From contig OY804589.1 of NCBI GenBank assembly GCA_963680875.1, forward strand, positions 22,971,462 to 23,035,461: a DNA stretch of 64,000 bases, read 5' to 3'. This stretch comes from Bathymodiolus brooksi. Taxonomy: Eukaryota; Mollusca; Bivalvia; Mytilida; Modiolidae. Made by a program: the position numbers and the translations under genes. Numbering within the stretch: position 1 is the first letter of the stretch; each line of letters starts with the position of its first letter. Shown here piece by piece: positions 836-22,922 of the stretch. The notes below the pieces were generated by a model. The model was given only the letters and a program-made list of their open reading frames with translations, was not told where the DNA came from and searched no databases.

Positions 836-3336
836 GTAAGACAGTATACCCATACCAGGACTCCACATCAGAACATGTAAGACAGTATACCCATACCAGG
901 ACTCCACATCAGAACATGTAAGACAGTATACCCATACCAGGACTCCACATCAGAACATGTAAGACAGTATACCCATACCAGGACTCCACATCAGAACATG
1001 TAAGACAGTATACCCATACCAGGACTCCACATCAGAACATGTAAGACAGTATACCCATACCAGGACTCCACATCAGAACATGTAAGACAGTATACCCATA
1101 CCAGGACTCCACATCAGAACATGTAAGACAGTATACCCATACCAGGACTCCACATCAGAACATGTAAGACAGTATACCCATACCAGGACTCCACATCAGA
1201 ACATGTAAGACAGTATACCCATACCAGGATTCCACATCAGAACATGTAAGACAGTATACCCATACCAGGACTCCACATCAGAACATGTAAGACAGTATAC
1301 CCATACCAGGACTCCACATCAGAACATGTAAGACAGTATACCTATACCAGGACTCCACATCAGAACATGTAAGACAGTATACCTATACCAGGACTCCACA
1401 TCAGAACATGTAAGACAGTATACCCATATCAGGACTCCACATCAGAACATGTAAGACAGTATACCTATACCAGGACTCCACATCAGAACATGTAAGACAG
1501 TATACCCATACCAGGACTCCACATCAGAACATGTAAGACAGTATACCCATACCAGGACTCCACATCAGAACATGTAAGACAGTATACCCATACCAGGACT
1601 CCACATCAGAACATGTAAGACAGTATACCCATACCAGGACTCCACATCAGAACATGTAAGACAGTATACCCATACCAGGACCCCACATCAGAACATGTAA
1701 GACAGTATACCCATACCAGGACTCCACATCAGAACATGTAAGACAGTATACCCATACCAGGACTCCACATCAGAACATGTAAGACAGTATACCTATACCA
1801 GGACTCCACATCAGAACATGTAAGACAGTATACCCATACCAGGACTCCACATCAGAACATGTAAGACAGTATACCCATACCAGGACTCCACATCAGAACA
1901 TGTAAGACAGTATACCCATACCAGGACTCCACATCAGAACATGTAAGACAGTATACCCATACCAGGACTCCACATCAGAACATGTAAGACAGTATACCCA
2001 TACCAGGACTCCACATCAGAACATGTATGACAGTATACCCATACCAGGACTCCACATCAGAACATGTAAGACAGTATACCCATACCAGGACTCCACATCA
2101 GAACATGTAAGACAGTATACCCATACCAGGACTCCACATCAGAACATGTAAGACAGTATACCCATACCAGGACTCCACATCAGAACATGTAAGACAGTAT
2201 ACCCATACCAGGACTCCACATCAGAACATGTAAGACAGTATACCCATACCAGGACTCCACATCAGAACATGTAAGACAGTATACCCATACCAGGATTCCA
2301 CATCAGAACATGTAAGACAGTATACCCATACCAGGACTCCACATCAGAACATGTAAGACAGTATACCCATACCAGGACTCCACATCAGAACATGTAAGAC
2401 AGTATACCTATACCAGGACTCCACATCAGAACATGTAAGACAGTATACCTATACCAGGACTCCACATCAGAACATGTAAGACAGTATACCCATACCAGGA
2501 CTCCACATCAGAACATGTAAGACAGTATACCCATACCAGGACTCCACATCAGAACATGTAAGACAGTATACCCATACCAGGACTCCACATCAGAACATGT
2601 AAGACAGTATACCCATACCAGGACTCCACATCAGAACATGTAAGACAGTATACCCATACCAGGACTCCACATCAGAACATGTAAGACAGTATACCCATAC
2701 CAGGACTCCACATCAGAACATGTAAGACAGTATACCCATACCAGGACTCCACATCAGAACATGTAAGACAGTATACCCATACCAGGACTCCACATCAGAA
2801 CATGTAAGACAGTATACCCATACCAGGACTCCACATCAGAACATGTAAGACAGTATACCCATACCAGGACTCCACATCAGAACATGTAAGACAGTATACC
2901 CATACCAGGACTCCACATCAGAACATGTAAGACAGTATACCCATACCAGGACTCCACATCAGAACATGTAAGACAGTATACCCATACCAGGACTCCACAT
3001 CAGAACATGTAAGACAGTATACCCATACCAGGACTCCACATCAGAACATGTAAGACAGTATACCCATACCAGGACTCCACATCAGAACATGTAAGACAGT
3101 ATACCCATACCAGGACTCCACATCAGAACATGTAAGACAGTATACCCATACCAGGACTCCACATCAGAACATGTAAGACAGTATACCCATACCAGGACTC
3201 CACATCAGAACATGTAAGACAGTATACCCATACCAGGACTCCACATCAGAACATGTAAGACAGTATACCCATACCAGGACTCCACATCAGAACATGTAAG
3301 ACAGTATACCCATACCAGGACTCCACATCAGAACAT
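836..3336. repeat. 41-bp minisatellite, 61 copies
   Basis: A head-to-tail array of a 41-bp unit beginning 'gtaagacagtatacccatac' and ending 'catcagaacat'. The span of 2,501 bp is exactly 61 units. Copies differ by only scattered single bases (for example 'cctatacc' for 'cccatacc', 'ggattcc' for 'ggactcc'), so the array is recent or strongly homogenised. There are no spacers, and the stop codons in the unit prevent a long reading frame. Confidence 0.97.
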
Positions 3337-4543
3337 GCAACCTGTCCACTGTGGATCAGTTCTGCCCCTAACTACAACTAGCTTAGATCCCCCCCCCCCC
3401 CCATTTTACCCAGACATCAGTGGAAGGCAAACTAATTAAGCTGTGCATGTCTTATCGACTTGAAATGAAGTTTTTCTTTATCTTAGAGTTGGTGGCAAAT
3501 CGTGGTTTCCGTTTATAATTAATTAAATAAATAAAAATGTACATGTGTGATGTATCATAGACTGATGATGTAATGTACTACTACCACGTGTTCCCAACCG
3601 GGTCACAGGGACTTGCTCCCAGACACTAAATTTTGCGCCATTGACGAATATTTTTCTTACTTTCGATCTGTTACCCACTAACCAAAATGGGTAACATATG
3701 CATTGATACATGAAGTAGAATGGCCGTGATTATGGCGCAAGGGTTATTTCATTTAAAGCGTAACGTTGGTGCATTTGTAGGATCTTGGTATAGCATAGAA
3801 GGTCAATTTCTATTAAAAACAATACTCACCACATTAATAATGCAAACTTCTGTGTACTCGAGTCTTGACGTAACTTTTGTCATGCATGCTTTTGCACAGG
3901 TGTTGTCAAATGCAAGCACGAAATGATCGCGATTTAAGGAAAAGTATCATAAGCCAAACAGATTGACAGATAACCAAAAATCAAGATGCTTGGAAATTGT
4001 TGTGTTTGTTTCTATAAATTTATACATGGCATTATTTCGTATTTACAATTCTATCATAACGAACATATAATTATTTAATATTCAGTACGACAGAGTATAG
4101 ATTTATCAAAGTTGTACAACAATGATATTCAAAAAACAGACGTAGACCTGTGTCATGAAAATATTACATTGTCATCAACTGTCATAAATTAATTTATGCT
4201 GAAAAAAAAACAAGACAACCTTAACATCAATGCGTGACAAATATGTATCAGGTTTATTATTGTAGTAATAAAAGTAGTTCAAAATTATAAAAGTAAAATT
4301 GTGATGTAAGTAATAAGGAAGTAGAAACAAACAAGAACATATTTTTGTTTACATTTTTACTTTGATATTAATGTTAGAGGAGTGTTGTTTGTTGTATGTT
4401 TGTTTAAATGAGGAGTACATACATTTAGCATTCATTTGACATGTCAAAATGACATTCGTAGAAGCTGTGAATAACTTAATGAAAACACAGATATCTAATT
4501 TAATGCAGACGACGAATTTGATGGAATAATAATATAAACGAAC
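3337..4543. other. Host DNA between minisatellite and receptor gene
   Basis: AT-rich sequence with a 14-base C run at 3389-3402. A 68-codon open frame at 3720-3926 (plus) has no recognisable domain. I see nothing else. Confidence 0.5.
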
Positions 4544-4712: not shown

Positions 4713-4800
4713 TAAACCCAAATCAATGGACAGCTAAATAATTTAAAAGTCGTTGACAGGGAGCATACTTGTTAAAGTGTGGCTACTGTGGGAGGAAAAC

Positions 4801-5969
4801 ATGTCGAACATAACACTGGAAGAATGGAATGCTGAAATTACACAAAACTTAATTCCAGATATTGTGATACTTTCATTGTACCTTATTATTGGTGTGTTTG
4901 GTAATCTAATTGTCATTGTTGTATATACATTCCAGATGAAGGAGAAAAATGACGAGCGTTATTTCGTACCAATTTTGGCAGTCTGTGATGTGATAAGTGC
5001 ATCATACATCTCAATATGGTCCATTTACCAAAATACACACCACGTTAGCTTTTCTGGTGTTATATTGTGTCAGATTGCTCAATTCTTCGTTGGAATAACA
5101 ACCTACATTCCCATTTTGTTATTGGTTATAATTGCAGTTCAAAGATATACCAAAGTATGCAAACCTCTTAGACCGCCGATGCAGTTGTACGTTAAACGGT
5201 GTATAGTTTGCATTGTCTTTGTCTTTTCAGTTTTGCTTGCGATACCTATTCCTTTAGTTTATGGCGTTGTTCCATTCCACACTACAGAATACATAATTAT
5301 CGGAAGTCGATGTGGGAAAGTAAAAGAAGGTACCAAACTGGTACGATCTATTTACGGAGTTGTCATAGGCTTAAGTGCCTTTATCATAGTCATAGTTCTT
5401 ATTGGACTTTACAGTAAAATTGGATACACAGTATATAAAACATTAAAAGGTGATAAAAATGAGCTAACACACACACGACCGGAACTAAATATAAAACGGA
5501 AGTACAGGAATCATCAACATTCTCTACGAAAGACCAATATGTGACGTCAACTACCGAGGCTGAAGATACGGATGTAAATTCCGATGCTACGTCATTAGAT
5601 GAACCGGTAACGGCTTCAAATAATATTCCAACAAATGGCGGCAGAGAAGTGAAAATCATATATATTACTTCAAAGAGTCGAAAAATTAAAAATCGTCAAC
5701 TGACTACTAAAATTACAATGATGTTTCTGGTAATAACAATAGTGTTTCTATTGAGTTACGTTCCTAAGGTTATACTGCTAATCATCGAAGGCATATCTCC
5801 ATATTTCTGGGAACAACTGTCCAATACACAACGACCAGGAATTATCTTCTTGTATCATATGTTTATTATCAATAACATAGCCAATCCTTTCGTTTACGCT
5901 TTCATGGATTTGACATTTCGGAATAACTCTAAACTTTTCTTGCAACGTATATGCATATGCAGTAAGTAA
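4801..5969 (+). pseudogene. Class A (rhodopsin-like) GPCR, frameshifted in the third intracellular loop
   Basis: A seven-helix receptor split over two frames. The first part (from the ATG at 4801) holds an N-glycosylation site (NIT), TM1 with the GN motif, TM2, TM3 with a conserved Cys and a QRY version of DRY, TM4, a second-loop Cys and TM5. The second part (open to 5969) holds TM6 with an LSYVP motif and TM7 with NPFVY, then a short Cys-rich tail. The frames meet in the Ser/Thr-rich third intracellular loop. The second frame is open from about 5471, just after the 'gataaaaatgagctaac' stretch, so a one-base slip there explains the break. No subfamily or ligand can be named. A sequencing error or a small intron would also explain the split, so calling it a pseudogene is provisional. 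Confidence 0.8.
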
Positions 5970-8061: not shown

Positions 8062-8067
8062 CATGGC
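8062..8067. repeat. Target-site duplication, left copy
   Basis: CATGGC, repeated exactly at 22917-22922 just outside the other end of the element. Six bases is the duplication length typical of Polinton integrases. Confidence 0.93.
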
Positions 8068-8272
8068 AGTAGTATATAGGGACAGCTCAAACCGCATTTG
8101 AGGGGGATCGATGGGGATCATGACGTCACCGGAAGTTGCATCACCGGAAATGACGTCACCGAAGTCGTGAACCGGAAATGAAAGGGAGATAATTTCCCGC
8201 GTTTTTTTCCCCGCGGTTTTTCCGGAACTCCTCTAGATTCTAGGTACGAACAATGGAATTGTGAATCCAACC
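8068..8272. repeat. Polinton left terminal inverted repeat
   Basis: 205 bp, matching 22710-22916 in reverse complement. The last shared bases are 'gtgaatccaacc'; beyond them the two sides diverge. Confidence 0.95.
8121..8200. promoter_or_regulatory. CRE/ATF, ETS and E2F-like sites in the left TIR
   Basis: Two perfect CRE palindromes TGACGTCA lie at 8121-8128 and 8151-8158. ETS-type cores (ACCGGAAGT, ACCGGAAAT) follow at about 8128, 8143 and 8171. An E2F-type TTTCCCGC is at 8193-8200. The same set is in the right TIR. Function is inferred from motif identity only. Confidence 0.55.
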
Positions 8273-8471
8273 TGTATCGAGTCACTATAGACCTATTACC
8301 CCATTTTCCCTCCTGAATTGTGGAGTCAGCCGTGATTAATTGACTCAGTGGTATGTGTATGCAATATATGACTGCATTTTCTATGTTCTTTTGTTTGTTT
8401 GGTTTTTTCGTAAATAAAATGTTATTCATCATACGGGGATTTACATTATAACTAAACGCCAAGTACATTTT
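8273..8471. other. 3' untranslated spacer between protease gene and left TIR
   Basis: About 200 bp without a coding frame on the minus strand. The late transcript would end here; an AATAAA lies at 8478-8483 inside the last codons of the protease gene. Confidence 0.5.
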
Positions 8472-8924
8472 CTAAGCTTTATTGATAAGACGATGCACAA
8501 AAGTCTTGACTATGTCTGTGGCTTCTCTCGGATGTCTCAATGTTCTCGTAACATCACCCATGGATTTTCCGGCACATCTGTGTATCAGATAAAATATACA
8601 GTGGTGTCCGCATACAGTGGAGTCTTCTTCTTGAACTCTAATGGCGTTGTAAGTCCAACTCGTACAATGTTTGTTCATAAAGTTCACGTAAGCCCATAAA
8701 AAGGGTGGTCTTCCTGTGGGGTCGTAATATTCTCCTCTAGAATTGGCATCGATGTATAGGGCTACCCAGTGTGTTCCCGGTCGATCGTCCGGGTCCGTGT
8801 TCCCTATCAAGGCCGAAGGTACGTTTAATCTTCTGGGTAGTCTGTTTCTGGCGTATACTCCTTTGAAAACGTTTCTGGTACTTGGGTGTGTTTTCAGTAC
8901 ATGGTCGATCTCTAAGGTGTTCAT
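8472..8924 (-). CDS. PRO: Adenain-like cysteine protease (virion maturation protease)
   Basis: A 150-residue protein of the adenovirus protease family (peptidase C5), which cleaves capsid precursors during virion maturation. The expected catalytic set is visible: H52 in 'GTHWVALY', an acidic residue D68 in 'YYDPTG', Q98, and C105 in the 'STVCGHHC' box. The Q-to-C spacing of seven matches the adenovirus enzyme. It is shorter than the roughly 200 residues of adenovirus proteases, as is usual in Polintons. The ATG directly abuts the stop codon of the capsid frame (8925-8927), so the two genes probably share a transcript. An AATAAA overlaps its last codons. The frame is intact. Confidence 0.93.
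   Translation of the reverse strand: MNTLEIDHVLKTHPSTRNVFKGVYARNRLPRRLNVPSALIGNTDPDDRPGTHWVALYIDANSRGEYYDPTGRPPFLWAYVNFMNKHCTSWTYNAIRVQEEDSTVCGHHCIFYLIHRCAGKSMGDVTRTLRHPREATDIVKTFVHRLINKA
8478..8483 (-). terminator. Candidate polyadenylation signal of the late gene block
   Basis: AATAAA on the minus strand, inside the final codons of the protease gene. It is the last good signal before the left TIR. Confidence 0.45.
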
Positions 8925-10226
8925 CTAAGCACTGTAGTCAAACAAGACTTGTCTGTTTCTATCAATTTCAATGACGTTGTCAAATTCTGCATACATGATC
9001 ACGTTGATGGTAGTTGTAAGGGCTTCTGCGAAATGAATCTCCACTCTCAAGTTGCCTTATTTTATCAGCTGAAAGGCTCCAACTTCAGACATGTCGGGTG
9101 TGAGATCAAATCCAAACAAGGTGTTTCCTTAGGCGTAATCTTCTCTCGAAATGGTATTTCCTTCGTCTTGATCCATTTTTCCGGTACTGGTGTAGAGTCC
9201 CATATAACTTCGGATGTAGCCATTGTTTTCGAAGTCGGGCTGTAGCGGTTTGGTTGGAATCTGTCGTCCGTCAACGTTGAGTGCCACAAAATTGATTTTG
9301 TAGTGTTTGAAATCGAACGGATTTTTCCCAATAGCGCCGTTCAGTGCATCGCTGTCTACACAGGCAATGACGAGTCTCTTTGGCAGCTGTCCCAAAAACA
9401 TATTGTCCTGAACGTAATTCATGTTGCCGGTGGGTACCGTGTCCACTTTTACTTCTACTCGTCTGACGGGGTATTTACAGCTGGTCTTTTCCAATGCTTT
9501 CACGTGACCCATTCTAACGGCGGGACTCAGTTGTACCTTTCTCACTTACAGAGCCATTTCCTTGATCTTGATTTTATAATTGGCCGCGTCTGCCACGAGA
9601 GCAAAAGCGTCCCGACTTCTTCTCAGTTTAATCTTCAGATCCACGTGATTGAGTAAGTATTTGTCTTGACAAAACAGATCCAAATGTAGTTTTCCCATCA
9701 TTTGTACCGACTTGCTTAGGGCCGTCAATTTTTTCCTTGCCGTGAATCTCTTGTTATCCGTCGTTCTCTTGTCCTGCTGTCCCGGAGTGTCCTTGTACCA
9801 CATCACGCCCGTCAACTGAGATTATTTAGCCGCTGGTCCGTAACTGAGAAGAGTTTCTATCTACGCCCTGTAGGGATACATGCTGGTCGGTGGCGAAACT
9901 AATTTTTCGTTTAGGCTAACGCTGACGTCACTGAACAGTGAATGCATCCACAAATCGACGGGTCCAACGTCCGTATCGGGTTCTAAGTTAGAACCATCGG
10001 TATTCACGATCTGTGCTTCCACAAACAAGTAAGTGTTGAACAGGTCGATGTAATCGTCTCCAGCTCCACTGACTGCAAATTCATAAGGACCTTGGTCCGT
10101 TAGGGTCGATGTCAGCCCTTTTTGCTCCCAATAGCCATGTTCCACACTGGTCTGAGTCGGTGGTACTCCAAACAAATCCAATTCCGATTTTGTACATTCG
10201 CAAGAGTGTTGGTGTACTAGAGCCAT
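8925..10226 (-). pseudogene. MCP: Major capsid protein (double jelly-roll, hexon-like) with five in-frame stops
   Basis: A frame of 433 codons plus stop runs from the ATG at 10226 to the TAG at 8925-8927. The N-terminal part has the Polinton MCP hallmarks ('LFGVPPTQTSVE', 'DYIDLFNTYL', 'DLWMHSLFSDVSVSLNE'), and later segments continue the family pattern to the end. The frame is broken by TAG at codon 122 (9861-9863) and TAA at codons 135 (9822-9824), 227 (9546-9548), 366 (9129-9131) and 390 (9057-9059). There is no net frameshift over 1.3 kb. The family forms the icosahedral shell of Polinton and adenovirus-type virions. As decoded normally, this copy gives only a 121-residue fragment. It lies 41 bp after the penton gene and abuts the protease gene. 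Confidence 0.92.
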
Positions 10227-10267
10227 TTTTAACCGAAGATGTCTTTCGATGTGTTCCGTAGCTTCGT

Positions 10268-11380
10268 CTAACGACGTCTGGGCTTTTTCCGTTTTGCAGC
10301 TCGTTTTATAGATCGTTCACCGGGAGGTCCCACGGTGTCCATAGCTTTCTGGAGTAAGTTTTGTCCAGTTGATTTCAATCTGGATTTGGCTGCTTGTGTG
10401 ACGTTCTGTCCTTCCATGACGTCCGATGCTAGGTTCAGACCTGTTTTCAAAGCTTCGCGACCCAAAGTTTTGGCTCCTCTCTTTAATAAAGGAACGGCCG
10501 ATTTGAACAGACTTCCGAAAATACTTCCTAGTCCATGTCCTCTCTGATAACGTGTTCCAACGTACACGGGATATCCCCTTCCTGCCTGATTCAAGTAGTA
10601 CTCGTGATACGCTCTAGCGTCTGGATTGTGTCTTTGCTTCATTCTAGATACGACTCCTTTCTTTCTGCAGTGAAGTGTCACCACCACGCGTCCTCGCTCG
10701 AATGGTATTTTGACTCCGGTATCGTCCCTTATATCTATTTCAACGGTCTGAAAGCGTCTTAGTACCAGAGGGCAGTACTGTATGTGGTCGAAGGCGCGAG
10801 TCATCATTTCTCCGTCTCTTCCTGCCACCGGTACGATTCTCAACAGTGGTACTTGAGCATCTCCTACCATCCTCGGTTCGACCAGGGGGCAATACACGTA
10901 CAGAGAATTTACTCCCCTGGTTACGTCTGCCACGTACGGTGCTTTATAATCTCCGGGTGGAAAATTCAGCTTGTCGAACCCCAGGAACGACTTTAACAAT
11001 GGACTGATGATCACTTGCGATAAGTCTCTAACCCATAATGTCGCTTTGTGGTCCACTTCGCTCATACCCAAGCTAAATCCCTTCTTCATCCCCTTCTGGT
11101 GTTTCATGGCTTCTAATGCTTTGACGATTCTCTTCGGGGAAGCATAATAACCTTCGGGCAGTACCAATATGTGTTTCTCGTGATGTCTATCCGTGAACAG
11201 TACCCATACTTCGTTTATGCGTACGTTGTACCAACTGTGCGGATATTGTATCTCTGCCAGTCCTATCTCCCAGGATCCATCCAAATCTAACATCTCCGGT
11301 AATCGTGTAGTGAAACTGGCCAGGGTGTTGTTCGGAAAATAGTCCATGGAACTGTTACTGGGTAAGGTCAGATAAAACAT
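10268..11380 (-). CDS. Minor capsid (penton-like) protein with basic amphipathic tail
   Basis: A 370-residue protein. The N-terminal 240 residues match the Polinton minor capsid (penton base-like, single jelly-roll) family, with an opening 'MFYLTLPSNSS' and a 'GSWEIGLAEIQYP' block. The protein should sit at the fivefold vertices. From about residue 280 a Gly-rich stretch ('GHGLGSIFGSLF') leads into a basic amphipathic region and a very basic C-terminus, a layout like adenovirus membrane-lytic or core proteins (pVI/pX). In this element that activity may therefore be fused to the penton. The start codon overlaps the upstream membrane-protein gene by 26 bp; the stop is 41 bp before the MCP start. 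No breaks. Confidence 0.85.
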   Translation of the reverse strand: MFYLTLPSNSSMDYFPNNTLASFTTRLPEMLDLDGSWEIGLAEIQYPHSWYNVRINEVWVLFTDRHHEKHILVLPEGYYASPKRIVKALEAMKHQKGMKKGFSLGMSEVDHKATLWVRDLSQVIISPLLKSFLGFDKLNFPPGDYKAPYVADVTRGVNSLYVYCPLVEPRMVGDAQVPLLRIVPVAGRDGEMMTRAFDHIQYCPLVLRRFQTVEIDIRDDTGVKIPFERGRVVVTLHCRKKGVVSRMKQRHNPDARAYHEYYLNQAGRGYPVYVGTRYQRGHGLGSIFGSLFKSAVPLLKRGAKTLGREALKTGLNLASDVMEGQNVTQAAKSRLKSTGQNLLQKAMDTVGPPGERSIKRAAKRKKPRRR

Positions 11381-11603
11381 GTTTGGACTTGATGGTGGGA
11401 TTAGGTAACAAGTATCCCAAACAACTGCTCAACAATGCCGTCCACAAAGTACTGTTCTCCGATTCGACCGTCAAGTTGTAAATGCTGACTACGATAACCG
11501 TGTACAGGATGAGTACCTGACACAGAAATACGATCTCCGATCGAGGTATCTTTTTTCCAAAGGCGATCCAAGACGATGTGCTGTCGGTGTCACTCGGTGC
11601 CAT
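11355..11603 (-). CDS. Small membrane protein conserved in Polintons
   Basis: 82 residues from the ATG at 11603. One transmembrane segment (about residues 23-43, 'EIVFLCQVLILYTVIVVSIY') precedes a short loop with an NLT glycosylation motif and a conserved tail 'LWTALLSSCLGYLLPNP'. Small proteins with this tail lie next to the penton or integrase gene in related elements, as I remember them. The role is unknown; a virion membrane or exit function is possible. The start is 16 bp from the integrase stop, and the 3' end overlaps the penton start. Confidence 0.7.
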   Translation of the reverse strand: MAPSDTDSTSSWIAFGKKIPRSEIVFLCQVLILYTVIVVSIYNLTVESENSTLWTALLSSCLGYLLPNPTIKSKHVLSDLTQ

Positions 11604-11619
11604 TTGCAAGACTGATGCT

Positions 11620-12669
11620 TCAAACCGCGACGCCTCGCTTTTGTAGGTCCTGTTTAAAGATCCAGCTGTTGAAGGACTCTGGATATCCGAGCCACTTTAC
11701 TAAATACTGTACTCGTCTTCCTTTCCGTCGTTTTTTCAGAACGCTTTGGATCTTGTATACGTCGTCCTGTTTAATGACTTTCTGTATCTCTTCGGCATAA
11801 AATGTTCCTTCCAGAATTTCACCGTGGTCGTCTTTGACTAAGTATACCGGGCGTCTGGTTTCGATACATTTCACTACCGTAAACAATTCTTCAGTCCGGT
11901 TGGGTAAATATCCTTTCTTGAACGTACGCTTGGCTTTGCTGAGTCGCACTCTATCTCCGGGAGAAAATTTGCACGATTGTTTGGGTCCCTTTCTTCCATA
12001 TAGCCTCTTGGACACCGTTGTTTGGTTAGCCCACGTGACTTCTGCCGGTGGTATGCCTATGGTTCTGTGAACGGTGTGGTTATAAGATGCGACCATCTCG
12101 GATAGAACTTCTACGTAGGTTAGGGTTTCTCTGTGTGTGAAATACTTCCACATCTTGGTTTTCAATGTTCTGTTAAAACGCTCAACGATACTGGCTTTGG
12201 TCTCCTCGTTGTAAGTGGTAAAGAAGTGCACGTCGTGTTCCTTGAGAAACTTTTGAAATACTCGGTTGGTAAATTCAGTTCCTTTGTCTGTCTGTAGACG
12301 TATCGGGCGCCGCCCCGATTTGAAAATGACCTGAAACGCGTCTTTCAAAGTCTTCCCCGTCTTGTCTTTCAATGGAACGACCCATGCATATCGCGATAAC
12401 ACGTCAATACATGTCAACAAGTACTTGAATCCTTTGTTGTAAGAAGACAATTTTGCCAGATCCACTAAATCCGCCTGCCACTGGTGGTCAATTCCATACA
12501 CGACCACTTGACGTCTGGGAAATCTTCGTCTAGTTGGTTTATGCAACGTGTACGTGTCCTGAGACTGTAACCATTCTCTGACTTCTTTCTTCGTATAACC
12601 TTTCGGCTTAAATTTACTCAATCCTCCATAACTAGCGGGAGCAACTACATTATAATAGGTCGACTCCAT
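11620..12669 (-). CDS. INT: Retrovirus-like DDE integrase with C-terminal chromodomain
   Basis: 349 residues from the ATG at 12667-12669. The frame is open further upstream, but 'MESTYYNVVAPASYGG' is the typical family start and the longer version overlaps the previous gene. The rve core has D67 ('QADLVDL'), D128 ('LQTDKGTEF') and E163 ('IVERFNRT'), 34 residues after the second Asp. The C-terminus (about 303-342, 'KWLGYPESFNSWIF') is a chromodomain, which in other integrases binds methylated histone tails and steers insertion. It joins the element's ends to target DNA, and the 6-bp TSD fits. No breaks. It starts 37 bp after the upstream gene. Confidence 0.95.
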   Translation of the reverse strand: MESTYYNVVAPASYGGLSKFKPKGYTKKEVREWLQSQDTYTLHKPTRRRFPRRQVVVYGIDHQWQADLVDLAKLSSYNKGFKYLLTCIDVLSRYAWVVPLKDKTGKTLKDAFQVIFKSGRRPIRLQTDKGTEFTNRVFQKFLKEHDVHFFTTYNEETKASIVERFNRTLKTKMWKYFTHRETLTYVEVLSEMVASYNHTVHRTIGIPPAEVTWANQTTVSKRLYGRKGPKQSCKFSPGDRVRLSKAKRTFKKGYLPNRTEELFTVVKCIETRRPVYLVKDDHGEILEGTFYAEEIQKVIKQDDVYKIQSVLKKRRKGRRVQYLVKWLGYPESFNSWIFKQDLQKRGVAV

Positions 12670-12706
12670 GTTTACAACTGCCCCCTTCGTGGTCTCAACC
12701 TCCGTT

Positions 12707-13315
12707 TTAAAAGGCGACCCAGTTCTTGACTTCTTTCCTTCTGTTTCTTGGTGTTTTTGGGGAGTACGGTCTAATAGGGGAGGGACTCTGTTGTCGTTTG
12801 CGAGATCTCGGTGTTCTTTTCGTCTGAGTGATGTATTTCCAGCGGTCCTCGTGACCAATCAAATCTTGTGGAACATTTGCTTCTCGTAAGGCTTCTCCGA
12901 ATGTTTCCCATCCTTGTGGATTGAAGTATTTCCTTTTGCGCAGCACGTCGTTCACTAAATATACCACGTTACTCCCTCTGACGGTTTCTCCCTTGTATTT
13001 CAGTTCCCCTTTCTCGCTCCAGGAAATGTTAGGGTCTGCTTTCATTTTCCTTACCAATAGATCGGCTTTGGTTTTCAGTGATGTCGACACTTTAGATACC
13101 CCGGGTCTAGGCCTGTAATCATCGTGGACGCTCAAATATCGAGTGAGCGATTGGTCGTATAGCTTGAGACGCTCGTCTGTCGACAGGTCTTCTCTTTCTA
13201 GTATGGATTCCATCTTTTTATCCAAGGTGTCCATGACTTTCACACGTTGTTCCACTGGAGGTTTTGGGCGCCCTTGAGTCTGTTGGTATCTATTCATTAA
13301 GGTTAGTTCCTTCAT
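12707..13315 (-). CDS. Polinton-conserved protein of unknown function
   Basis: 202 residues. I recognise the pattern from other animal Polintons and adintoviruses but know no function. An N-terminal region is rich in charged helices ('TLDKKMESILEREDLSTDE', 'LTRYLSVHD'). A core (about residues 85-165) contains 'ISWSEKGELKYKGETVRGSN' and 'VVYLVNDVLRKRK'. A basic Ser/Pro/Arg-rich tail follows and could bind nucleic acid. The start overlaps the previous gene's stop in an ATGA. Its place between core-like protein and integrase suggests a virion or DNA-associated role. Confidence 0.75.
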   Translation of the reverse strand: MKELTLMNRYQQTQGRPKPPVEQRVKVMDTLDKKMESILEREDLSTDERLKLYDQSLTRYLSVHDDYRPRPGVSKVSTSLKTKADLLVRKMKADPNISWSEKGELKYKGETVRGSNVVYLVNDVLRKRKYFNPQGWETFGEALREANVPQDLIGHEDRWKYITQTKRTPRSRKRQQSPSPIRPYSPKTPRNRRKEVKNWVAF

Positions 13316-13647
13316 TGAAACAAAGTAGAGAGCAACGGTGCTACTACAGAGGCAATCGGTGCTAGTAGGGATCCCAAAAATCCACCTTTCTGTAAGATCG
13401 CTTTCTTATTTTTGAGAGAGACCGACTTTTTCGTCAGTGCTCTCAATCCGGCCTTATTTCTCGCGAGTTTTTCCTTCTGCGGTTTAGTTAACGGGACGTT
13501 TCCTCTTAAAATGTTATCGGCACACTCACACAGACAGTCGACGAGACTGCGATCGGCTTTGGTGATGAGGTGTTTACGAATACACGGTCTTGCTTTTTGT
13601 AAATACACTAACTCGTTGGCGTGTTTCTTTAAGCGCTGAGAGACCAT
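13312..13647 (-). CDS. Small basic protein with hydrophobic C-terminus (core or membrane-lytic candidate)
   Basis: 111 residues. The first 85 are helical and basic, with a Cys pair region ('VDCLCECADNILRGNVPL') and several Lys-rich stretches. The last 24 ('GGFLGSLLAPIASVVAPLL' and onward) form a Gly-led hydrophobic amphipathic segment. This two-part layout recurs in adintovirus-type elements and resembles small adenovirus virion proteins with membrane activity. That role is inferred from layout only. The stop overlaps the next start by 4 bp. Confidence 0.7.
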   Translation of the reverse strand: MVSQRLKKHANELVYLQKARPCIRKHLITKADRSLVDCLCECADNILRGNVPLTKPQKEKLARNKAGLRALTKKSVSLKNKKAILQKGGFLGSLLAPIASVVAPLLSTLFQ

Positions 13648-13707
13648 GTTACTGCTTCCGCATCTCTCGTAAAACTGAATTAATCTTGGATAGACTGGGA
13701 TATATAA

Positions 13708-14844
13708 CTAAATATCGGCGTACGCTTTCTGTTCCTCACCGGGAAAGATATGACTTCTTAGTCTCAAGATGTCCGGTGTCTCTTGTTTCATATCGATGAC
13801 TAAATAACCGTGGGGTCGAGCAGCGGCTGCTGTGTAGGCTTCCAAAAAGTATTTCGTCCTTTGGGGATACATTTGATGCGCCAAGGCCATGATCTGCGAT
13901 ACGTCTCTCGGGTTTTTGAAGACGACCATGTAATGGGCATTGAGACTTATGGTTCTATGGTGTTTTCCTCGATGAAACAGATTCTGAACGATGTACATGA
14001 CACTGATGTTTCTGTGGTGACTCTTCTTCGTAAACAGAGAAGCTACTCTTTGATCCGTTTCGTCCATGAGATCGTCTAAGATGATTAAATGTTTTTCTCT
14101 GGGGTCGAAGGTGTCCAAGTCCGGCAATCCTTGGTGAAAGTCCACCCCATCTACGGTTCCGTATAAAGTCTGGTATTCTCCATAACACCACAAGATGCGA
14201 TCTGGTATTGGGGTCATCATGTGTTTGATATTGTGTACGAATCTCCTGACAAAGACGGATTTTCCACTTCCGGTTGGTCCCGAGATTACACTGGTAAATG
14301 GATGGACCCACGGCATGAAATGATCGGGATCGTATCCGTCTGGAACGTAAAATGTGTAAGGATTGCTGGTTTTCAAAATATAATAGGGTTCTTCTTCATT
14401 ACTCTGTGAGTATGGCTGCTGCGGCGGCGGAGGCTGTGGCGTATTTCCCTCTCTCAGCGGCGGCGGCGGCAGTTGTGGCGTATTTCCCTCTCTCAGCGGC
14501 GGCGGCGGCAGTTGTGGCGTATATCCCTCTCTCAGCAGCGGCGGCGGCAGTTGTGGCGTATATCCCTCTCTCAGCGGCGGCGGCGGCGTATATCTCTCTC
14601 TCAGCGGCGGCGTATATCCCTCTCTCAGCGGCGGATACGCATCACTGCTCTGTGGATACGGATGAGTTGTTCCATGCTTATTTCTTTTATGTCTCAACAT
14701 GACATCTTTTCTCGAACATTTCAGTTTACATACGGGGCATGTTGAAGACATCTCGTAAAACACGTCTTTCCTCTTTGACGGTTTGTATACGACTGACTGA
14801 ATTAGGGTAGATGGGGGCATATTTATAACAAACAAATAATACAT
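13708..14844 (-). CDS. ATPase: FtsK/HerA-type genome-packaging ATPase with zinc finger and proline-rich linker
   Basis: 378 residues from the ATG at 14844; a start at residue 32 (14751), just before the zinc finger, is also plausible. In order: a C2H2 finger (C36, C39, H52, H57); a proline-rich linker of about 70 residues built from a 14-residue tandem repeat ('PPLREGYTPQLPPP'); and a P-loop ATPase with Walker A 'GPTGSGKS' (189-196) and Walker B 'LIILDD' (253-258). The ATPase core matches the A32-like packaging motors of Polintons and large DNA viruses, which pump the genome into the capsid. The linker repeat differs slightly between copies and is a recent expansion. The frame is intact. Confidence 0.92.
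   Translation of the reverse strand: MYYLFVINMPPSTLIQSVVYKPSKRKDVFYEMSSTCPVCKLKCSRKDVMLRHKRNKHGTTHPYPQSSDAYPPLREGYTPPLRERYTPPPPLREGYTPQLPPPLLREGYTPQLPPPPLREGNTPQLPPPPLREGNTPQPPPPQQPYSQSNEEEPYYILKTSNPYTFYVPDGYDPDHFMPWVHPFTSVISGPTGSGKSVFVRRFVHNIKHMMTPIPDRILWCYGEYQTLYGTVDGVDFHQGLPDLDTFDPREKHLIILDDLMDETDQRVASLFTKKSHHRNISVMYIVQNLFHRGKHHRTISLNAHYMVVFKNPRDVSQIMALAHQMYPQRTKYFLEAYTAAAARPHGYLVIDMKQETPDILRLRSHIFPGEEQKAYADI
14420..14640. repeat. Coding minisatellite (42-bp unit) in the ATPase linker
   Basis: GC-rich tandem copies ('ctctctcagcggcggcggcg') that keep the reading frame and encode the 14-residue proline-rich repeats. Copies vary in length by multiples of three. Confidence 0.85.
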
Positions 14845-14852
14845 TTCTAACT

Positions 14853-14858
14853 TTTATT
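14853..14858 (-). terminator. Candidate polyadenylation signal after the PC4-like gene
   Basis: AATAAA on the minus strand directly after the TAA stop. It would end a transcript before the late gene block. Confidence 0.45.
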
Positions 14859-15476
14859 TTACAAGTCTGTTCTATACAAGGGAACTAACTGTCTCAGTTC
14901 TGGCTCTCTTTCTTCCAACAATGGGATGATCTGTTTCAGTTCTTTCCATTCTCCAAAGTGTAAAGCCACACCTCTCTTGGTAGGACGGTAGGTCCATTCA
15001 TCGGCGGGGATAAAGTGCTTTCTGATGTGAACGAAGGGAAACGGTGCCTTGATCGTCACGAAAACGTCGTTTCCGATATGGTATCGCCACTCTACTGGTT
15101 CTTTTTCTATGACTCTGGTAAGCAAATCGTCTATGACGTCCGACATGTTGCACAGGGCTTTCCATTGATCCAAATGTAAGCTCACTCCTTCTTTCGTAGG
15201 GACTGTGGCATCTTTCCAGAATCGTAAGTCTACTCTCTTGGATCCGTTCCATTCTGTTAACTCCAAGTATATGTTTCCTCCCAGGGCTCGTTTGAGCGGC
15301 TGAATGTCGACCATTTGGGCTGCCATCTGCAAGATGTCTTCTATTTGTGCGGTATCGGGCGTCTGTGAGCCGTTTTGTGTCGGTGGCATCTCTACGATAT
15401 CAATTATCTGCGGGGTTTTAGGCTGCTGTTCTGTCATCTGAACGCCTTTGGTTCTTTTACCTTTTTGACTTGGCAT
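14859..15476 (-). CDS. Protein with two PC4-like ssDNA-binding domains
   Basis: 205 residues. After a Gln/Pro/Thr-rich N-terminus there are two related domains, about 65-118 ('ALGGNIYLELTEW', 'KEGVSLHLDQWKAL') and 132-188 ('HIGNDVFVTIKAP', 'TKRGVALHFGEWKEL'). Both match the transcriptional coactivator p15/PC4 fold: an initial strand, an aromatic-rich strand, the G-V-x-L-x-x-x-x-W turn and a helix. PC4 proteins bind single-stranded DNA and assist transcription and replication. A duplicated form could bind both strands of an opened duplex or replace a viral ssDNA-binding protein; that is inference. A CCAAT-box cluster lies 80-200 bp upstream. Confidence 0.8.
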   Translation of the reverse strand: MPSQKGKRTKGVQMTEQQPKTPQIIDIVEMPPTQNGSQTPDTAQIEDILQMAAQMVDIQPLKRALGGNIYLELTEWNGSKRVDLRFWKDATVPTKEGVSLHLDQWKALCNMSDVIDDLLTRVIEKEPVEWRYHIGNDVFVTIKAPFPFVHIRKHFIPADEWTYRPTKRGVALHFGEWKELKQIIPLLEEREPELRQLVPLYRTDL

Positions 15477-15554
15477 GTTGCGGGTTCCAGCCAGTAAATG
15501 ACGCAGAGGTTTAGTTACATCATCTTATATCCAATAATAATAACGACGTATCTG

Positions 15555-15672
15555 ATTGGTCGATTTCTTTCGTAACGTCGTATCTGATTGGACAGTCATT
15601 CTGTGTTTCGATTGGCCAGTTGTTTATGAAATGGAGCTTTCTGATTGGTTCCTTTTCCTCTATTCTGATTGG
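15555..15672 (-). promoter_or_regulatory. Cluster of five CCAAT boxes
   Basis: CCAAT on the minus strand at 15555-15559, 15587-15591, 15611-15615, 15644-15648 and 15668-15672, mostly within a repeated 'tctgattgg' context. They lie 80-200 bp upstream of the PC4-like start, the distance expected for NF-Y sites in a promoter. The rightmost box overlaps the end of the Bcl-2-like ORF. Confidence 0.6.
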
Positions 15673-15920
15673 TGGATGAGCGATCGATTGAAGTATTCGT
15701 ATTCTGTCCCTTTAAGAACGGCATGGTAAATGTCCCAAAACATCCATGCATCGGTGGGGTACTGTTGCCCCATTTGACTCGTGAAGGCAAATAACACTAG
15801 CACTCGACCCATCTTGATAACACCGTCATTGAACATGGTAGACACAATCCTTCTATACGTCTGTACTCTATCGTTGTCCATATCTGAATGATATCTATTT
15901 GCCCTTTTTTCTGTTTTCAT
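15660..15920 (-). CDS. Bcl-2-like ORF with BH1 motif (partial)
   Basis: 86 residues. Residues 28-46 ('TMFNDGVIKMGRVLVLFAF') fit the Bcl-2 BH1 signature F-x-D-G-V-x-x-G-R-hhh-hh-F that spans helices 4-5. The Trp usually before GR is replaced by Met. A following helix ('DAWMFWDIYHAVL') could be helix 6. No BH3 or BH2 motif is visible, and the ORF is about half the size of a Bcl-2 fold, so it is truncated, spliced to unseen exons, or coincidental. Bcl-2 proteins control mitochondrial apoptosis, and viral copies usually keep infected cells alive. It sits between the PC4-like gene and PolB, beside host repeat fragments. Confidence 0.5.
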   Translation of the reverse strand: MKTEKRANRYHSDMDNDRVQTYRRIVSTMFNDGVIKMGRVLVLFAFTSQMGQQYPTDAWMFWDIYHAVLKGTEYEYFNRSLIHQSE

Positions 15921-15968
15921 AGGCTTTTGACCACGCCATTGTTTTAAACTTGACGTGACCGTTGTGTT

Positions 15969-16114
15969 GTCCCTGTGGAGCTCATACTCTGTACTTTAAT
16001 GTGCTGTCCCTGTGGGGCTCATATTCTGTACTTTAATGTGCTGTCCCTGTGGGGCTCATACTCTGTACTTTAATGTGCTGTCTCTGTGGGGCTCATACTC
16101 TGTACTTTAATGTG
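15969..16114. repeat. 37-bp tandem repeat, four copies
   Basis: Unit 'gtccctgtggggctcatact' plus 17 more bases ending 'taatgtgct', with one to two differences per copy. It lies upstream of the Bcl-2-like ORF, where a promoter could be. Confidence 0.9.
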
Positions 16115-16138
16115 AAGTCCTTTGTTGTATGTGTATGT

Positions 16139-16631: not shown

Positions 16632-19600
16632 TTAAATATCTAACGGGATTGTAGACACTCCATCTGCCAGCACTTTTCTTTTAGGGTAAAAGTAAGAAAA
16701 TCCAGCTCTTTCTTGTAAATACGTATACATTTTATTGTCAATGACACGGAAACCTCTGTTGGTACCGGATCCAGACTGCTTGGTTAGCAGGACGTCCATG
16801 TACTTGTCTTTGTGGATGTCGTTTAGACGTTTATTGATCCCCTTGCAGCTGAACTTGTCTTCCTTCCCGAAACAGTAGTAGGTCTTGCTACACAAGGCAA
16901 CAATTCCATCTCCTCTGTACTCTTCTTTGAAGAGCCCGGGTGTCCTCTTGTCGTAGGCAGCATGTTCGCGGGTGTCATCACGGGGAAACCAGTCGTTCTT
17001 CTCTAATATATATTTCTGTCGTAAATGAGGTTTTACGACTTCTTCCAGGGTGTCTGTGGAAAGTGCCATATATGCACTATCCGTGTCCATGCTGCAATAC
17101 TGGAAGTCCGAGCGATCCACAAACACGTCCATGAAGTCATAGTAAAACTCCAGCATCTGGTGCTTGGCGTACTGGTAGACAACACAGCCAATCTGCATGG
17201 GTAAATCTAAAGTTATTGTCTTCTTACTCATTTCGACTTCAAATGTATCTTCGTTAAGCTGGTTACATTTACGGAAAAACGGATCTACAAGGTATTGATG
17301 GACATATCTATCCTTACAGTATATAACGTCTGTATGTCTCTCTTTGTTGGTGATTGTTTTCCCGTAGCTGGAATTTCCATCTAGCTTATTGGTTTCGGCT
17401 ATGATTTTTTTATGTGGATCCGCATCTCCGGCTCGGCGGGCATCGCTGACGGCTTCTCCAAATTTCTGGAAACAGGTTGCAGGACTATATTCAACGACCT
17501 GGTAAATACGGGTGACGACGAGTCCTTTGAGCAAATACCATTTTAATAGCGGGGTGATTATCATGATCTTTTCTCCAAACATACTTCCGACCAGACTTTT
17601 ACGGGGTTGAGACAGGATGTCGTGGTCCACGGCATACTGCCGCATGTGGTCACCAATATCGTCTCTGGATACTTCGACGTTTTTAAATATGGGTGACATC
17701 TCGGCAAACGTCGGTTTTAAGTGGTCGGGGACGTGAAGATCGACTTCCAAAGCACCAAACAGTTGATCGTTCAAGACGGCGGCCAGTATCTGGTCCTCTG
17801 TCATGGTGACCAAACCATCACATGGTCGTTTTCGATGTTCGATAAAACGACTCAATTCCGGGTCTCTTTTGATACTGGCTAGCCATTGACATTCCCACAT
17901 CTCCACGACGTTGTAGCCTTGTTCTTTGATGTATTGTATCTTGTCATGCGTATGGTGGTACAAGTCGTCTAAGTTCTTTCCGTTGACGGGGTTGACGCCG
18001 TTATGTTTTTTGGTCATCCAGCATCGATGTCCGTGCCAGATACATCCCTGGAATTCGTAGACGGTGTTGGTGTCTCTGCAAAATCCGTCCACAGGAAAAC
18101 GCTTCATCCCGATCAATTTTTCGGAGTCGTTGCCCTGGTGACGAATATGCTGTCCGGTGTTCTTGGCTTCCCACTCCAACCAATTGATGGCCATACACTC
18201 GTAGCGTCTTGGCGCTTGTCTCTTGAACCCATCTTCTTTCTTCCGTCGGACGAAATGGCCGGTAGGCATCTTCTGCATAATACTCCAAAGATATAGAGCA
18301 TTGGCGTCTACACCATAAATCAACTGACAGGGCTTTGGATCTGTGTACTCGGTAGGTCGTATGAAGGTCTTATCTTTCTCGTGGTAACGATGAAACACGA
18401 TGCTCGGGCCCCCAACGATGTTGTTCTTGTATAGGTCGTACAGATCTTTATTCTTCTCATCCGGTAAGGTGAAGTAGTCTGGTAGGTCTTGGAACATGTA
18501 CTTCAGTGTGAGTCCGGGAACGCTGATGCCGTCTTTAAACATATCGATGTGGCGATTCTGGTTAAACTGAAACATCTTGTCGATGGCTTCCAACATGGGT
18601 TCGACGTCCTTGTTGTTGTACCATGTCAGGAACTCTTTCATGGTCTTCATGTCGTTGTCTTCCCATACTGTCTGGCACAGCTGGTAGTCTTCGGCAGAGA
18701 TATTTTCGTTTTTCAAAGTACTGTAGAAGGCTTCGTGAGGTGGCAGTTGGCTGACGTTGAGTTTATCCAACGAGGTCATCCACTCGTACGGGAAGAATCC
18801 TTTCTGTTCTGTACACTTGTAGGCTTTCAGGTACTGACTATAACTAAAGCCGGGCGCAAGATAATTGCTGATGTCGACAAACTTCAGCTTCTCTGTCTTG
18901 ATACACATGAAATTGTTGTTCCGATTCACGGTATACTTGATCTTGTGACTGTCCACCAATCGAGTAAAAAAATCTACCTTCATGGCGTTGACGTCATATT
19001 TCCCCGTATTGAAACCGACCACGCGGAGTTCTTGTAGGTATTGTTCCAACTGCTTTTTCAACTGGTACAGGTGATGTTTCTTTTCTTCACGTTCTCTTTC
19101 TTCGTCGTCTTTGTACTCTTCCAAGTCTTGGTCTAATCTCTGTTGAATTTCTTCAAATATCATTCCATACCTTGGCACCAGTAAGCGAAAAGCTTTTTCG
19201 CTGATATCTGTTAAATGCTGCAAACAGGACTCTGCCGTCTCACTGGTATCACCTTCCGTAACAAAGCAGATGGACTCGGTATAGGTAGGAACGTTGGAAC
19301 ATACAGACACGCTGAGTAGTACATGATGACTGGTCCACTCCAACTTCTCGGATCGTCTCTTTTCTGTGGGCTGTAACATCACCTCAATGTCATAGGTAGC
19401 TCTATACGGGTAATACCGGTCTTCTTCTGGGACGTCGATGCCTTCGTCTTCTAACCGGTCGAATACGGTCTGTGTTGTATGGTACACGCCACCAGGATAC
19501 TTGTAGATAACATCTCCGGTACAGGTCCGTTCATGTCTGTGCAGCTTTCCAACATGTTTCCACAACCGGTCACATTTCGAACACAGGTAGCTGTGACTGT

Positions 19601-21101
19601 ATGACCTCAGGTCTTTAATGTAGCTGAAGTGCTGTTCGTACAGGTTCAAATTCATGGTGTCGTCGTACTTGTATGGAGAACGTCGTACCAACCGAGCTGC
19701 GATGTCACCAGCTTCTGTTTCTTGTAAGTCATACACATACACGTTCAAGCTAAATACCTGCTCCAATACCACCAAATCATCCAATGTCACACCCTTGAAG
19801 TCTGCAGGGGTCATGTCTTGTTGTTGTAGACACTGTCTGTAATAGGTCTTGGCTGGGGTTTCTAAATCTTGGACATCTACAACCCCACTATGTACTGCTA
19901 AACAACGGAAAAAGCATAGGTTGTCTGTGTAGGCACCATGGGATCCACCAACTAAAGCAACGACAGCTTTGTTTTTCAAAATATGGTCTGGAAGAACGAC
20001 TCTGGCACCAATCGGGTGGTCAAACAGCTTGTTGACATAAAACGTCACATTGGTCAGGAGGTGCACCACCCATTTGGTGTCAGGACGTTGTTGGCGAATA
20101 TACACTAACATGTCATGTCGGCTCAACTCCTCTAGAAACCTCTCCAAGTCTTCTTCTGTTCTGATGAGGTGTGGAGCATCAAAAAATCTGGAGTTATTCT
20201 GGCTGGAGTGGTAGTACCGTAATTCTCCAGTTTCCACGTTTCTCAAAATAAAACCAAACGACAGGTTGATTTTAAAGGCTGTGGTCTGCTGTCGAAAGAT
20301 CCGGCGCACCATCTCTGGAAAAGTGGACGCTGTCATATCATGCAAGGTAAAATTATACCTGTCTTGGACACGATTGCCGGTCACCTCCTCTGTACGGATG
20401 GTATTCCAGTGTCTTAAATATAGGATATGGGTCTCCGGATCTTCTGGTAATATATTAGGTTCAACGGACGGACTGTTGGAAAACTGGGGACTGTGCCTTC
20501 GTGGTTGCTTTGGAGGACTATTGGATGGTCCAGGAGATGGAGGTCTCTTCATCACTTCAGGTCTTTCGTGGAGAGCCCGGTGACGGAGCATGTTTTCCCT
20601 TCTATTAAAATATTGACCACAAACGGGACAGGTAATCGTGTAGTTGTGGGATTCCTCGTGGCGTTTTCTGTGGTCTGCCCTCTTAAACTCCTTCCCACAC
20701 ACACCACAGGGATAGGTCTGCGAAGAATCTACATGGGTTTTCATGTGTCGGGTGAGGTTGCTCTTCTCCGTAAACTGTTTCCCACATTTGTCACACACGT
20801 TCTTCTGAAACGATACAATAGAAGCATACGCTATGTTTGGGTAAAAAGTTCAATATTATTTTATTCCTGTTTTGAGATTTTATCGTCTCTTTTGTTTGTG
20901 TGATGCATATATATTGAGTGGAATGGCTCCTTCTTTAGTTTGTGTGTTTCTTGTCTCGTGTATCTAAATACGTAGTATCGATTTCCCTCTAGAGCCTCTT
21001 TATTTTTTCATACTATATTTAATAGTTATGTTTCATTTATCAAACCCAATGAGTCAAATGTAAACACATAATTAAAAAACACTTACGCTGCTTTTATCCA
21101 T
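16632..21101 (-). CDS. PolB: Protein-primed family B DNA polymerase, two coding exons
   Basis: Main exon 16632-20804 (1,391 codons with stop) plus five codons at 21087-21101, joined across a GT-AG intron (20805-21086) without changing frame. Residues are numbered from the GTG at 20798. Three C2H2 fingers lie within 2-76. An OTU-like region follows, with C295 in 'DNLCFFRCL' and H390 in 'EQHFSYI', then a further finger at 405-426. Exonuclease motifs are ExoI D470/E472, ExoII N597-D602 and ExoIII Y727-D731. Polymerase motifs are A at D831 ('GVDANALYL'), B at K1138-G1146 ('NSSYG') and C at D1238/D1240 ('MDTDS'). A nuclease-like insert (D904, E915, 'GCIWHGH') lies between A and B. It should replicate the linear element with a protein primer. 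All motifs and the frame are intact. Confidence 0.93.
20805..21086 (-). other. Intron in the PolB gene
   Basis: Starts GTAAGT (21086-21081) and ends TTTCAG (20805-20806 is the AG) after a pyrimidine-leaning tract. Splicing joins complete codons. Without it the main frame has no ATG before the first zinc finger. Confidence 0.75.
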
Positions 21102-21112
21102 CTTCGTTGAAT
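21087..21112 (-). other. 26-nt exon with the PolB start codon
   Basis: Bounded by an acceptor (TTTCAG ending at 21113) and a donor (GTAAGT from 21086). The ATG is at 21099-21101 and contributes five codons. Confidence 0.7.
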
Positions 21113-21958: not shown

Positions 21959-22004
<46 letters not shown>

Positions 22005-22637: not shown

Positions 22638-22711
22638 ATTGGTTGGATTTGAATTCGAAGCAAGAAGGGGTACGATTGGTGGGATTCAAATATGAGAAGT
22701 GCTACGATTGG
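22638..22711 (-). promoter_or_regulatory. Three CCAAT boxes inside the right TIR border
   Basis: CCAAT on the minus strand at 22638-22642, 22675-22679 and 22707-22711, in a repeated 'acgattgg' context with 32-37-bp spacing. They lie 107-180 bp upstream of the first leader donor, a fitting place for the PolB promoter. The left TIR has no such boxes. Confidence 0.55.
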
Positions 22712-22916
22712 TTGGATTCACAATTCCATTGTTCGCACCTAGACTCTAGAGGAGTTCCGGAAAAACCGCGGGGAAAAAAAACGCGGGAAATTATCTACCT
22801 TTCATTTCCGGTTCACGACTTCCTGTGACGTCATTTCCGGTGATGCAACTTCCGGTGACGTCACGATCCCCATCGATCCCCCTCAAATGTGGTTTGAGCT
22901 GTCCCTATATACTACT
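22710..22916. repeat. Polinton right terminal inverted repeat
   Basis: 207 bp, reverse complement of 8068-8272. It carries CRE sites at 22826-22833 and 22856-22863, an E2F-type site at 22783-22790 and ETS cores. Confidence 0.95.
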
Positions 22917-22922
22917 CATGGC
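22917..22922. repeat. Target-site duplication, right copy
   Basis: CATGGC, identical to 8062-8067. Confidence 0.93.

What the first reader, a model, noticed from the sequence alone, without database searches (positions are those of the whole stretch)
8925..10226. Capsid frame broken only by stop codons
The 433-codon frame has five internal stops (codons 122, 135, 227, 366, 390) and no net indel, while about 3,200 codons of neighbouring genes have none. If stops fell at random over the element's roughly 3,670 codons, all five landing here would be very unlikely (about 0.118 to the fifth power). Possible readings are relaxed or adverse selection on the capsid alone (a shift from virus to transposon), a localised mutational process, or stop suppression. 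The stop contexts are not a known readthrough signal.
Basis: partly seen in the sequence, partly recalled or inferred. Interest (0 to 1): 0.75.

Follow-up and report, generated by a model that had tools for sequence, protein, structure and literature searches.

The report
One capsid-dead copy of a Polinton
One copy of a young, abundant virus-like element in an animal genome has a capsid gene broken by five stop codons that its closest sister copies lack, so it is a local pseudogene, odd mainly because so many of its few mutations are stops.

Summary
Window 8925-10226 (minus strand) is a 433-codon Polinton/Maverick major capsid (MCP) frame with stops at codons 122, 135, 227, 366 and 390 and no indel. 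The window lies in a 2.0-Gb animal genome; the complete element spans 8068-22916.

A genome search scored 40 of 514 MCP candidates, all at least 96% identical. Among 37 sister MCPs read, none that covers the site has stop 122, 227, 366 or 390; three share stop 135. Of the 29 closest, 25 have no in-register stop and 4 have one each, elsewhere. This argues against stop suppression and against a capsid-less family.

Two corrections. Sisters' other genes carry stops too. This copy also has a private 2-bp deletion fusing the penton ORF to the next, and a private 72-bp in-frame deletion.

What remains odd is the ratio: 5 of 8 private MCP changes are nonsense, against 10 of 198 in 34 sisters (Fisher 5e-5), of mixed substitution type. 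I read it as private pseudogenisation with a chance nonsense excess; repeated selection against the capsid is possible but unproven.

A side finding may matter more: copies sharing a 98-99% identical core carry either PolB or a CARD-PC4 ORF at the same junction.

The parts
8062..8067 (.). target-site duplication, left (CATGGC)
   Evidence: the same 6 bp directly flank both ends
8068..8272 (.). terminal inverted repeat, left
   Evidence: 6 mismatches and 2 gaps over 207 columns against the right arm
8472..8924 (-). PRO, adenovirus-type cysteine protease (likely)
   Evidence: PF00770 E 0.0056, below the curated cut-off; position next to MCP
8925..10226 (-). MCP (double jelly-roll major capsid protein), broken frame of 433 codons
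   Evidence: identity by homology of a sister copy and fold of a sister's protein
9861..9863 (-). internal stop, codon 122 (TAG)
   Evidence: absent in 36 of 36 other copies covering it
9822..9824 (-). internal stop, codon 135 (TAA)
   Evidence: its 18-mer occurs at 3 other places in the genome, each an MCP copy with that stop
9546..9548 (-). internal stop, codon 227 (TAA)
   Evidence: its 18-mer occurs once in the genome; absent in 37 of 37 other copies
9129..9131 (-). internal stop, codon 366 (TAA)
   Evidence: absent in 35 of 35 other copies covering it
9057..9059 (-). internal stop, codon 390 (TAA)
   Evidence: absent in 36 of 36 other copies covering it
10268..11380 (-). PEN (penton/minor capsid) fused by a private 2-bp deletion near 10660 to the next ORF
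   Evidence: the name rests on homology to unnamed proteins and on recall of Polinton gene order, no Pfam match
11620..12858 (-). INT, retroviral-type integrase with chromodomain
   Evidence: PF00665 5e-16, PF00385 5.9e-9
12707..13315 (-). ORF of unknown function with a private 72-bp in-frame deletion at 13077/13078
   Evidence: 20 of 20 sisters have 72 bp more there
13312..13647 (-). ORF of unknown function, 111 aa
13708..14844 (-). packaging ATPase (A32/IVa2-like)
   Evidence: PF04665 9e-6, PF02456 9.3e-5
14859..15476 (-). PC4-domain protein
   Evidence: PF02229 4.8e-18
16632..20798 (-). PolB-like ORF, 1388 aa, N-terminal C2H2 zinc fingers; nearest full-length genomic match 93%
   Evidence: polymerase motifs recognised from memory, no Pfam polymerase match
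22710..22916 (.). terminal inverted repeat, right
22917..22922 (.). target-site duplication, right (CATGGC)

Best explanation
This is a private capsid pseudogene in one insertion of a young, high-copy Polinton family. Shown: the element is complete at its ends; its core (PRO to the PC4 gene) is about 98-99% identical to that of the sister copies compared (20 to 29); sister MCPs mostly have no in-register stop; four of the five stops were seen in no other copy examined. Inferred: after this copy, or its recombinant parent, split from the family, its MCP was no longer needed. Germline copies are not selected one by one, and sisters can supply capsid in trans. Five single-base nonsense changes then accumulated, one of them at a codon (135) where other copies have a stop too. 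The shortage of accompanying missense changes is taken to be chance, made visible because a striking gene was picked out of many.
For: Own-genome search: 40 of 514 MCP candidates scored, all 96-100%. Stop census in 30 copies, 35 and 38. The 18-mer over stop 227 is found once genome-wide; that over stop 135 is found 4 times, in copies that share at most one other rare allele each with the window copy. Sister private changes are neutral in make-up: 132 missense, 56 synonymous, 10 nonsense in the MCP of 34 sisters, against 182 of 3897 possible single changes giving a stop. This copy's private changes outside the MCP (20 sites, one in two overlapping genes) score 15 missense, 6 synonymous, 0 nonsense, also neutral-looking. 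Over the whole element without PolB, 5 nonsense of 29 private sites has P 0.011-0.017. Other lesions exist in the same copy. Two older sisters without an indel carry 2 and 3 stops (L084, L086).
Against: Inside the MCP the nonsense share is far above neutral: 5 of 9 (P 2.5e-5), Fisher 3.1e-4 against 29 sisters, 5 of 8 and Fisher 5.0e-5 against 34, 4 of 6 and P 9e-5 when 37 sisters define what is private. Chance must be helped by selection of the case. With 514 candidate copies and about eight genes each, roughly 0.1 such genes would be expected in this family (my rough product of 2.5e-5 and about 4000 gene copies). Three of five 18-mer searches did not complete, so privacy of stops 122, 366 and 390 rests on 35-36 copies. 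Trans-complementation was not tested.
Confidence: 0.62

Rival explanations
1. Repeated selection against capsid expression at this insertion: the capsid or its fragments are harmful to the host, and successive truncations were favoured, so nonsense changes outnumber missense ones.
For: 5 of 8 private MCP changes are nonsense against 10 of 198 in 34 sisters; PRO, INT and ATPase of the copy have no stop; the penton is also altered.
Against: After the earliest stop, later ones gain nothing unless each shortens a harmful fragment. The 29 sisters show no such pattern. It is one copy only.
Confidence: 0.13
2. Stops were brought in by gene conversion or recombination with older decayed copies.
For: The family is mosaic: core 98-99%, right third mostly 92-96%. 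Stop 135 is found in 3 other copies. One of these shares the rare allele at codon 7, another the one at codon 163.
Against: The three sharers carry none of the other four stops and differ from the window copy at several codons around 135. The 18-mer of stop 227 is unique.
Confidence: 0.12
3. Assembly or base-calling error, or another artefact of the deposited sequence.
For: One assembly only, and reads were not available. PMC8547959 (passages) reports that Sanger sequencing did not confirm gene fragmentation in endogenous virophages.
Against: Five pure substitutions with no indel in the gene, four of them bases not found in the other copies read, are an unusual error pattern. The last homologue search settles nothing (best 120 of 521 seen).
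Confidence: 0.1
4. Family-wide shift from virus to transposon with loss of the capsid gene.
For: An otherwise open element with a dead MCP.
Against: 25 of 29 close sisters have no in-register MCP stop; 3 of those 25 have small indels. Nonsense shares are similar in PRO, MCP and PEN of sisters.
Confidence: 0.03

Closest known systems
Polinton/Maverick elements of animals
   Same: Six-bp target duplications, inverted ends, INT, ATPase, double jelly-roll MCP, likely PRO and penton, PolB-like ORF. PMC8097293 (passages) describes the same parts in vertebrates and says that most copies are degraded.
   Different: The genes found here lie on one strand, whereas the vertebrate elements of that paper have two facing modules. 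The MCP of this copy is dead; sister copies may lack PolB.
Degraded Maverick copies of vertebrates
   Same: Genes broken by stops and frameshifts in multi-copy families (PMC8097293, passages).
   Different: There the polymerase gene is named as fragmented in several high-copy hosts; here PolB is open and MCP is broken, with an unusual share of nonsense.
Endogenous retroviruses that lost env
   Same: A structural gene decays while copies spread by trans-complementation or within the genome (discussed in PMC8097293, passages).
   Different: No spreading of this capsid-dead copy was found: its 227 stop is unique in the genome.

Membership tests
[quoted passage not shown]
Polinton/Maverick | retroviral-type integrase | tested here: met
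   PF00665 5e-16 plus chromodomain
Polinton/Maverick | double jelly-roll major capsid protein | tested here: met
Polinton/Maverick | packaging ATPase | tested here: met
   PF04665 9e-6, over its cut-off
Polinton/Maverick | adenovirus-type protease | tested here: inconclusive
   PF00770 E 0.0056, below the cut-off
[quoted passage not shown]
   1388-aa ORF with polymerase motifs recognised from memory; no Pfam polymerase match, and its place is not among the 128 PF03175 matches listed for the genome
capsid-less transposon lineage | several copies sharing the capsid lesions | tested here: inconclusive
   stop 227 18-mer 1 place, stop 135 18-mer 4 places; searches for the other three stops did not complete; none of the 35-36 other copies covering them has them
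stop-codon reassignment or suppression | same stops conserved across copies | tested here: not met
   0 of 29 closest sisters have any of the five; 3 of 37 have stop 135

The most novel reading that the evidence does not exclude
At one insertion of an otherwise largely open Polinton the capsid gene was knocked out several times over by nonsense changes, because capsid expression from an endogenous copy is costly. The host would be turning a provirus into a capsid-free element, visible as a nonsense excess.
Probability: 0.1. Interest if true: 0.6.

Novelty: new member of a known kind. Interest (0 to 1): 0.33.

Why it matters
It shows that a capsid gene riddled with stops beside open neighbours need not mean recoding or a capsid-less lineage: the sister copies decide. 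The ratio of nonsense to missense among private changes is a simple statistic that could be run over all copies of such families to test whether hosts select against capsid genes. The family itself (many copies with a 98-99% identical core and different replication ends) is a good natural system for virus-transposon exchange.

Tried and rejected
Rejected: stop suppression; a single mutational class; a family-wide capsid loss. I first suspected that PolB-bearing copies have dead capsids while PolB-less copies keep theirs. One search rejected this: of 20 further sisters probed in 801-bp stretches, 8 showed PolB sequence, 9 CARD-PC4 sequence and 3 neither, and both larger groups include copies without an MCP stop.

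Led nowhere: viral-contig scans with two MCP pieces and with the CARD-PC4 protein (0 relatives each); a PDB sequence search with the first MCP piece (0 hits); a PDB sequence search with the PolB-like ORF, whose 60 rows shown out of 132 match only its zinc fingers; PHROGs (two weak hits in the PolB-like ORF, none in the other two proteins); Pfam search for a polymerase domain in the C-terminal 922 aa (none); the last homologue search, with the MCP piece between stops 227 and 366, to find the stops in independent data (521 proteins, best 120 seen, not settled). Dating by the inverted ends was not decisive: 6 mismatches in 207 columns here, 3 in 297, 4 in 226 and 4 in 181 in three sisters, two of these with many gaps; a fourth gave no alignment. 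Paper searches, listings only. In those listings I saw no report of a nonsense excess in a Polinton capsid or of a CARD-PC4 gene in a Polinton; the searches were few. Paper text seen: passages of PMC8547959, PMC8097293 and PMC11071308. One paper, PMC8502044, was not held. Two paper-reading runs failed on their search terms (25, 57).

Full report
What is there. The window lies at C18:22971462-23035461 of an unnamed 2.0-Gb genome of 136 contigs. The host is an animal, probably a mollusc. This is inference: the nearest capsid relatives with an animal name, at 62-65%, are from scallops; closer ones are unnamed or named after bacterial bins, one of them a mussel gill symbiont (best 120 of 1612 seen). 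A complete Polinton/Maverick spans 8068-22916 (14,849 bp). Its inverted ends (8068-8272 and 22710-22916) differ by 6 mismatches and 2 gaps in 207 columns, and CATGGC flanks both sides. The genes found lie on the minus strand: PRO, MCP, PEN, INT, two small ORFs, ATPase, a PC4-domain gene and a 1388-aa PolB-like ORF. I call the last one PolB from motifs I recall (a YxDTDS-like and a KxxxNSxYG-like motif); Pfam gave no polymerase match, and its place is not among the 128 listed matches of the PF03175 search.

Sister copies. A DNA search of the own genome with the MCP gave 514 candidates, of which 40 were scored, all 96-100% identical and 38 of them full length. Thirty were fetched, the window copy included. 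Of the 29 sisters, 25 have no in-register stop and 4 have one each at other codons; 3 of the 25 have a small indel. Five more distant copies have 0, 0, 1, 2 and 3 stops. An exact 18-mer over stop 227 occurs once in the genome. That over stop 135 occurs four times. The other three places are MCP copies of 91-98% identity with stop 135 and none of the other four. Around codon 135 they differ from the window copy at several codons; one shares its rare allele at codon 7 and another that at codon 163. I read stop 135 as recurrent mutation, but conversion is not excluded. The window copy carries six alleles seen in none of the 35-37 other copies covering them; four of these are the stops 122, 227, 366 and 390.

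How odd is it? I counted as private a base that no other fetched copy has. Against 29 sisters the window MCP has 9 private changes: 5 nonsense, 2 missense, 2 synonymous. PRO and PEN have one synonymous change each. The 29 sisters together have 81 private MCP changes, 4 of them nonsense; 24 in PRO, 1 nonsense; 64 in PEN, 4 nonsense. With 34 sisters the figures are 198 and 10, and the window copy then has 8 private changes, 5 of them nonsense (Fisher 5.0e-5). With 37 sisters it is 4 of 6 (P 9e-5). Of all possible single changes in an unbroken sister MCP, 182 of 3897 make a stop. So the sisters decay neutrally, and the window copy is the outlier. INT, the two small ORFs, ATPase and the PC4 gene, compared with 20 sisters, have 4, 10, 1, 4 and 0 private changes, none nonsense. 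One site lies in two overlapping genes, and only 773 of 1137 nt of the ATPase gene and 244 of 618 of the PC4 gene could be compared. Over the 29 private sites of the element without PolB, five nonsense has P 0.011-0.017; all five in the MCP has P 1.1e-3 and all in any one gene at most 3.2e-3. PolB could not be included: its nearest full-length match in the genome is only 93% identical (40 of 108 candidates scored; one partial match is 97%). Of the four nonsense sites with a single alternative among the 29 sisters, one is a transition and three are transversions, so no single deaminase-like process explains them.

The neighbours are not undamaged. All 29 sisters have 1-2 more bases near 10660, and the window's 370-aa penton ORF is a frameshift fusion with the next ORF. 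The sister frame ends at 247 aa in 21 of 29 and at 245 in one. It ends earlier in four through their own lesions, and three had only partial alignments, whose lengths mean nothing. All 20 sisters examined have 72 bp more at 13077/13078. The absence of stops in the other genes compared needs no selection: with 20 private sites there, about one nonsense is expected.

Mosaic family. PRO to PC4 is about 98-99% identical between copies, apart from a variable repeat in the ATPase gene, while the stretch from about 16.3 kb to the right end differs mostly by 4-8%, more where gaps are many. At window position 16658 the copies switch. Of 24 sisters probed (4, 20), 10 have PolB sequence (84-97% to the window; some truncated), 11 have CARD-PC4 sequence, and 3 showed neither in the stretch read. 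The 9 CARD-PC4 stretches are 99.4-100% identical to that of L059. Two of the ORFs were read whole (288 and 274 aa), and Pfam gave CARD E 5.5e-14 and 7.4e-14, with PC4 below its cut-off. The one sister PolB read over its full length appears split by a frameshift into two overlapping ORFs. PolB of the window copy is thus open and of a type without a close full-length copy, joined to a common core.

Reading. The best account is a private pseudogene in one insertion, in a family whose copies are not individually selected and may be complemented by sisters. The nonsense excess is real in the counts, but it is one case picked for being striking; across some 4000 gene copies of this family about 0.1 such genes would be expected (rough estimate). 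Selection against the capsid at this insertion, conversion from decayed copies and artefact remain open, in that order. Shown: the stops, their absence from most sisters, the neutral decay of sisters, the other lesions. Inferred: lack of need for the capsid, complementation, chance.

Noticed in passing
window 16658 junction; L059:540-1406, L061:485-1309 (minus strand): In copies whose core is 98-99% identical to the window element, PolB is replaced at the same junction by an ORF with a CARD domain and a PC4-like domain (sequence found in 11 of 24 sisters probed), near-identical among copies. It may be a host-derived death-domain gene carried by PolB-less Polintons.
   Followed up: partly
window 16632-20798: The PolB-like ORF of the window copy is of a type whose nearest full-length genomic match is 93% identical, although the capsid core is 99% identical to many copies, so the element looks recombinant.
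   Followed up: partly
window 10268-11380: The penton ORF is fused to the following ORF by a deletion of 2 bp that all 29 sisters lack (one of them has a single extra base there).
   Followed up: yes
window 13077/13078: A 72-bp in-frame deletion relative to 20 of 20 sisters in an ORF of unknown function.
   Followed up: partly
P0006 (public protein): A public 400-aa protein that joins the start of the penton to a later part of the MCP: it looks like a deletion chimera of a related element.
   Followed up: no
L034 and L038, C10:51.936-51.945 Mb: Two copies face each other so closely that their predicted extents overlap (coordinates).
   Followed up: no
window 836-3337, 25634-29050, 35537-36055: Large tandem arrays: 41-bp unit x 61, 49-bp unit x 70 (underlies a 1222-aa repetitive ORF), 17-bp unit x 31.
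   Followed up: no
window 4753-5969 and 23167-23565: A GPCR-like coding stretch split over two ORFs, and a Tc1/mariner-like transposase fragment next to the element (recognised by eye, not tested).
   Followed up: no
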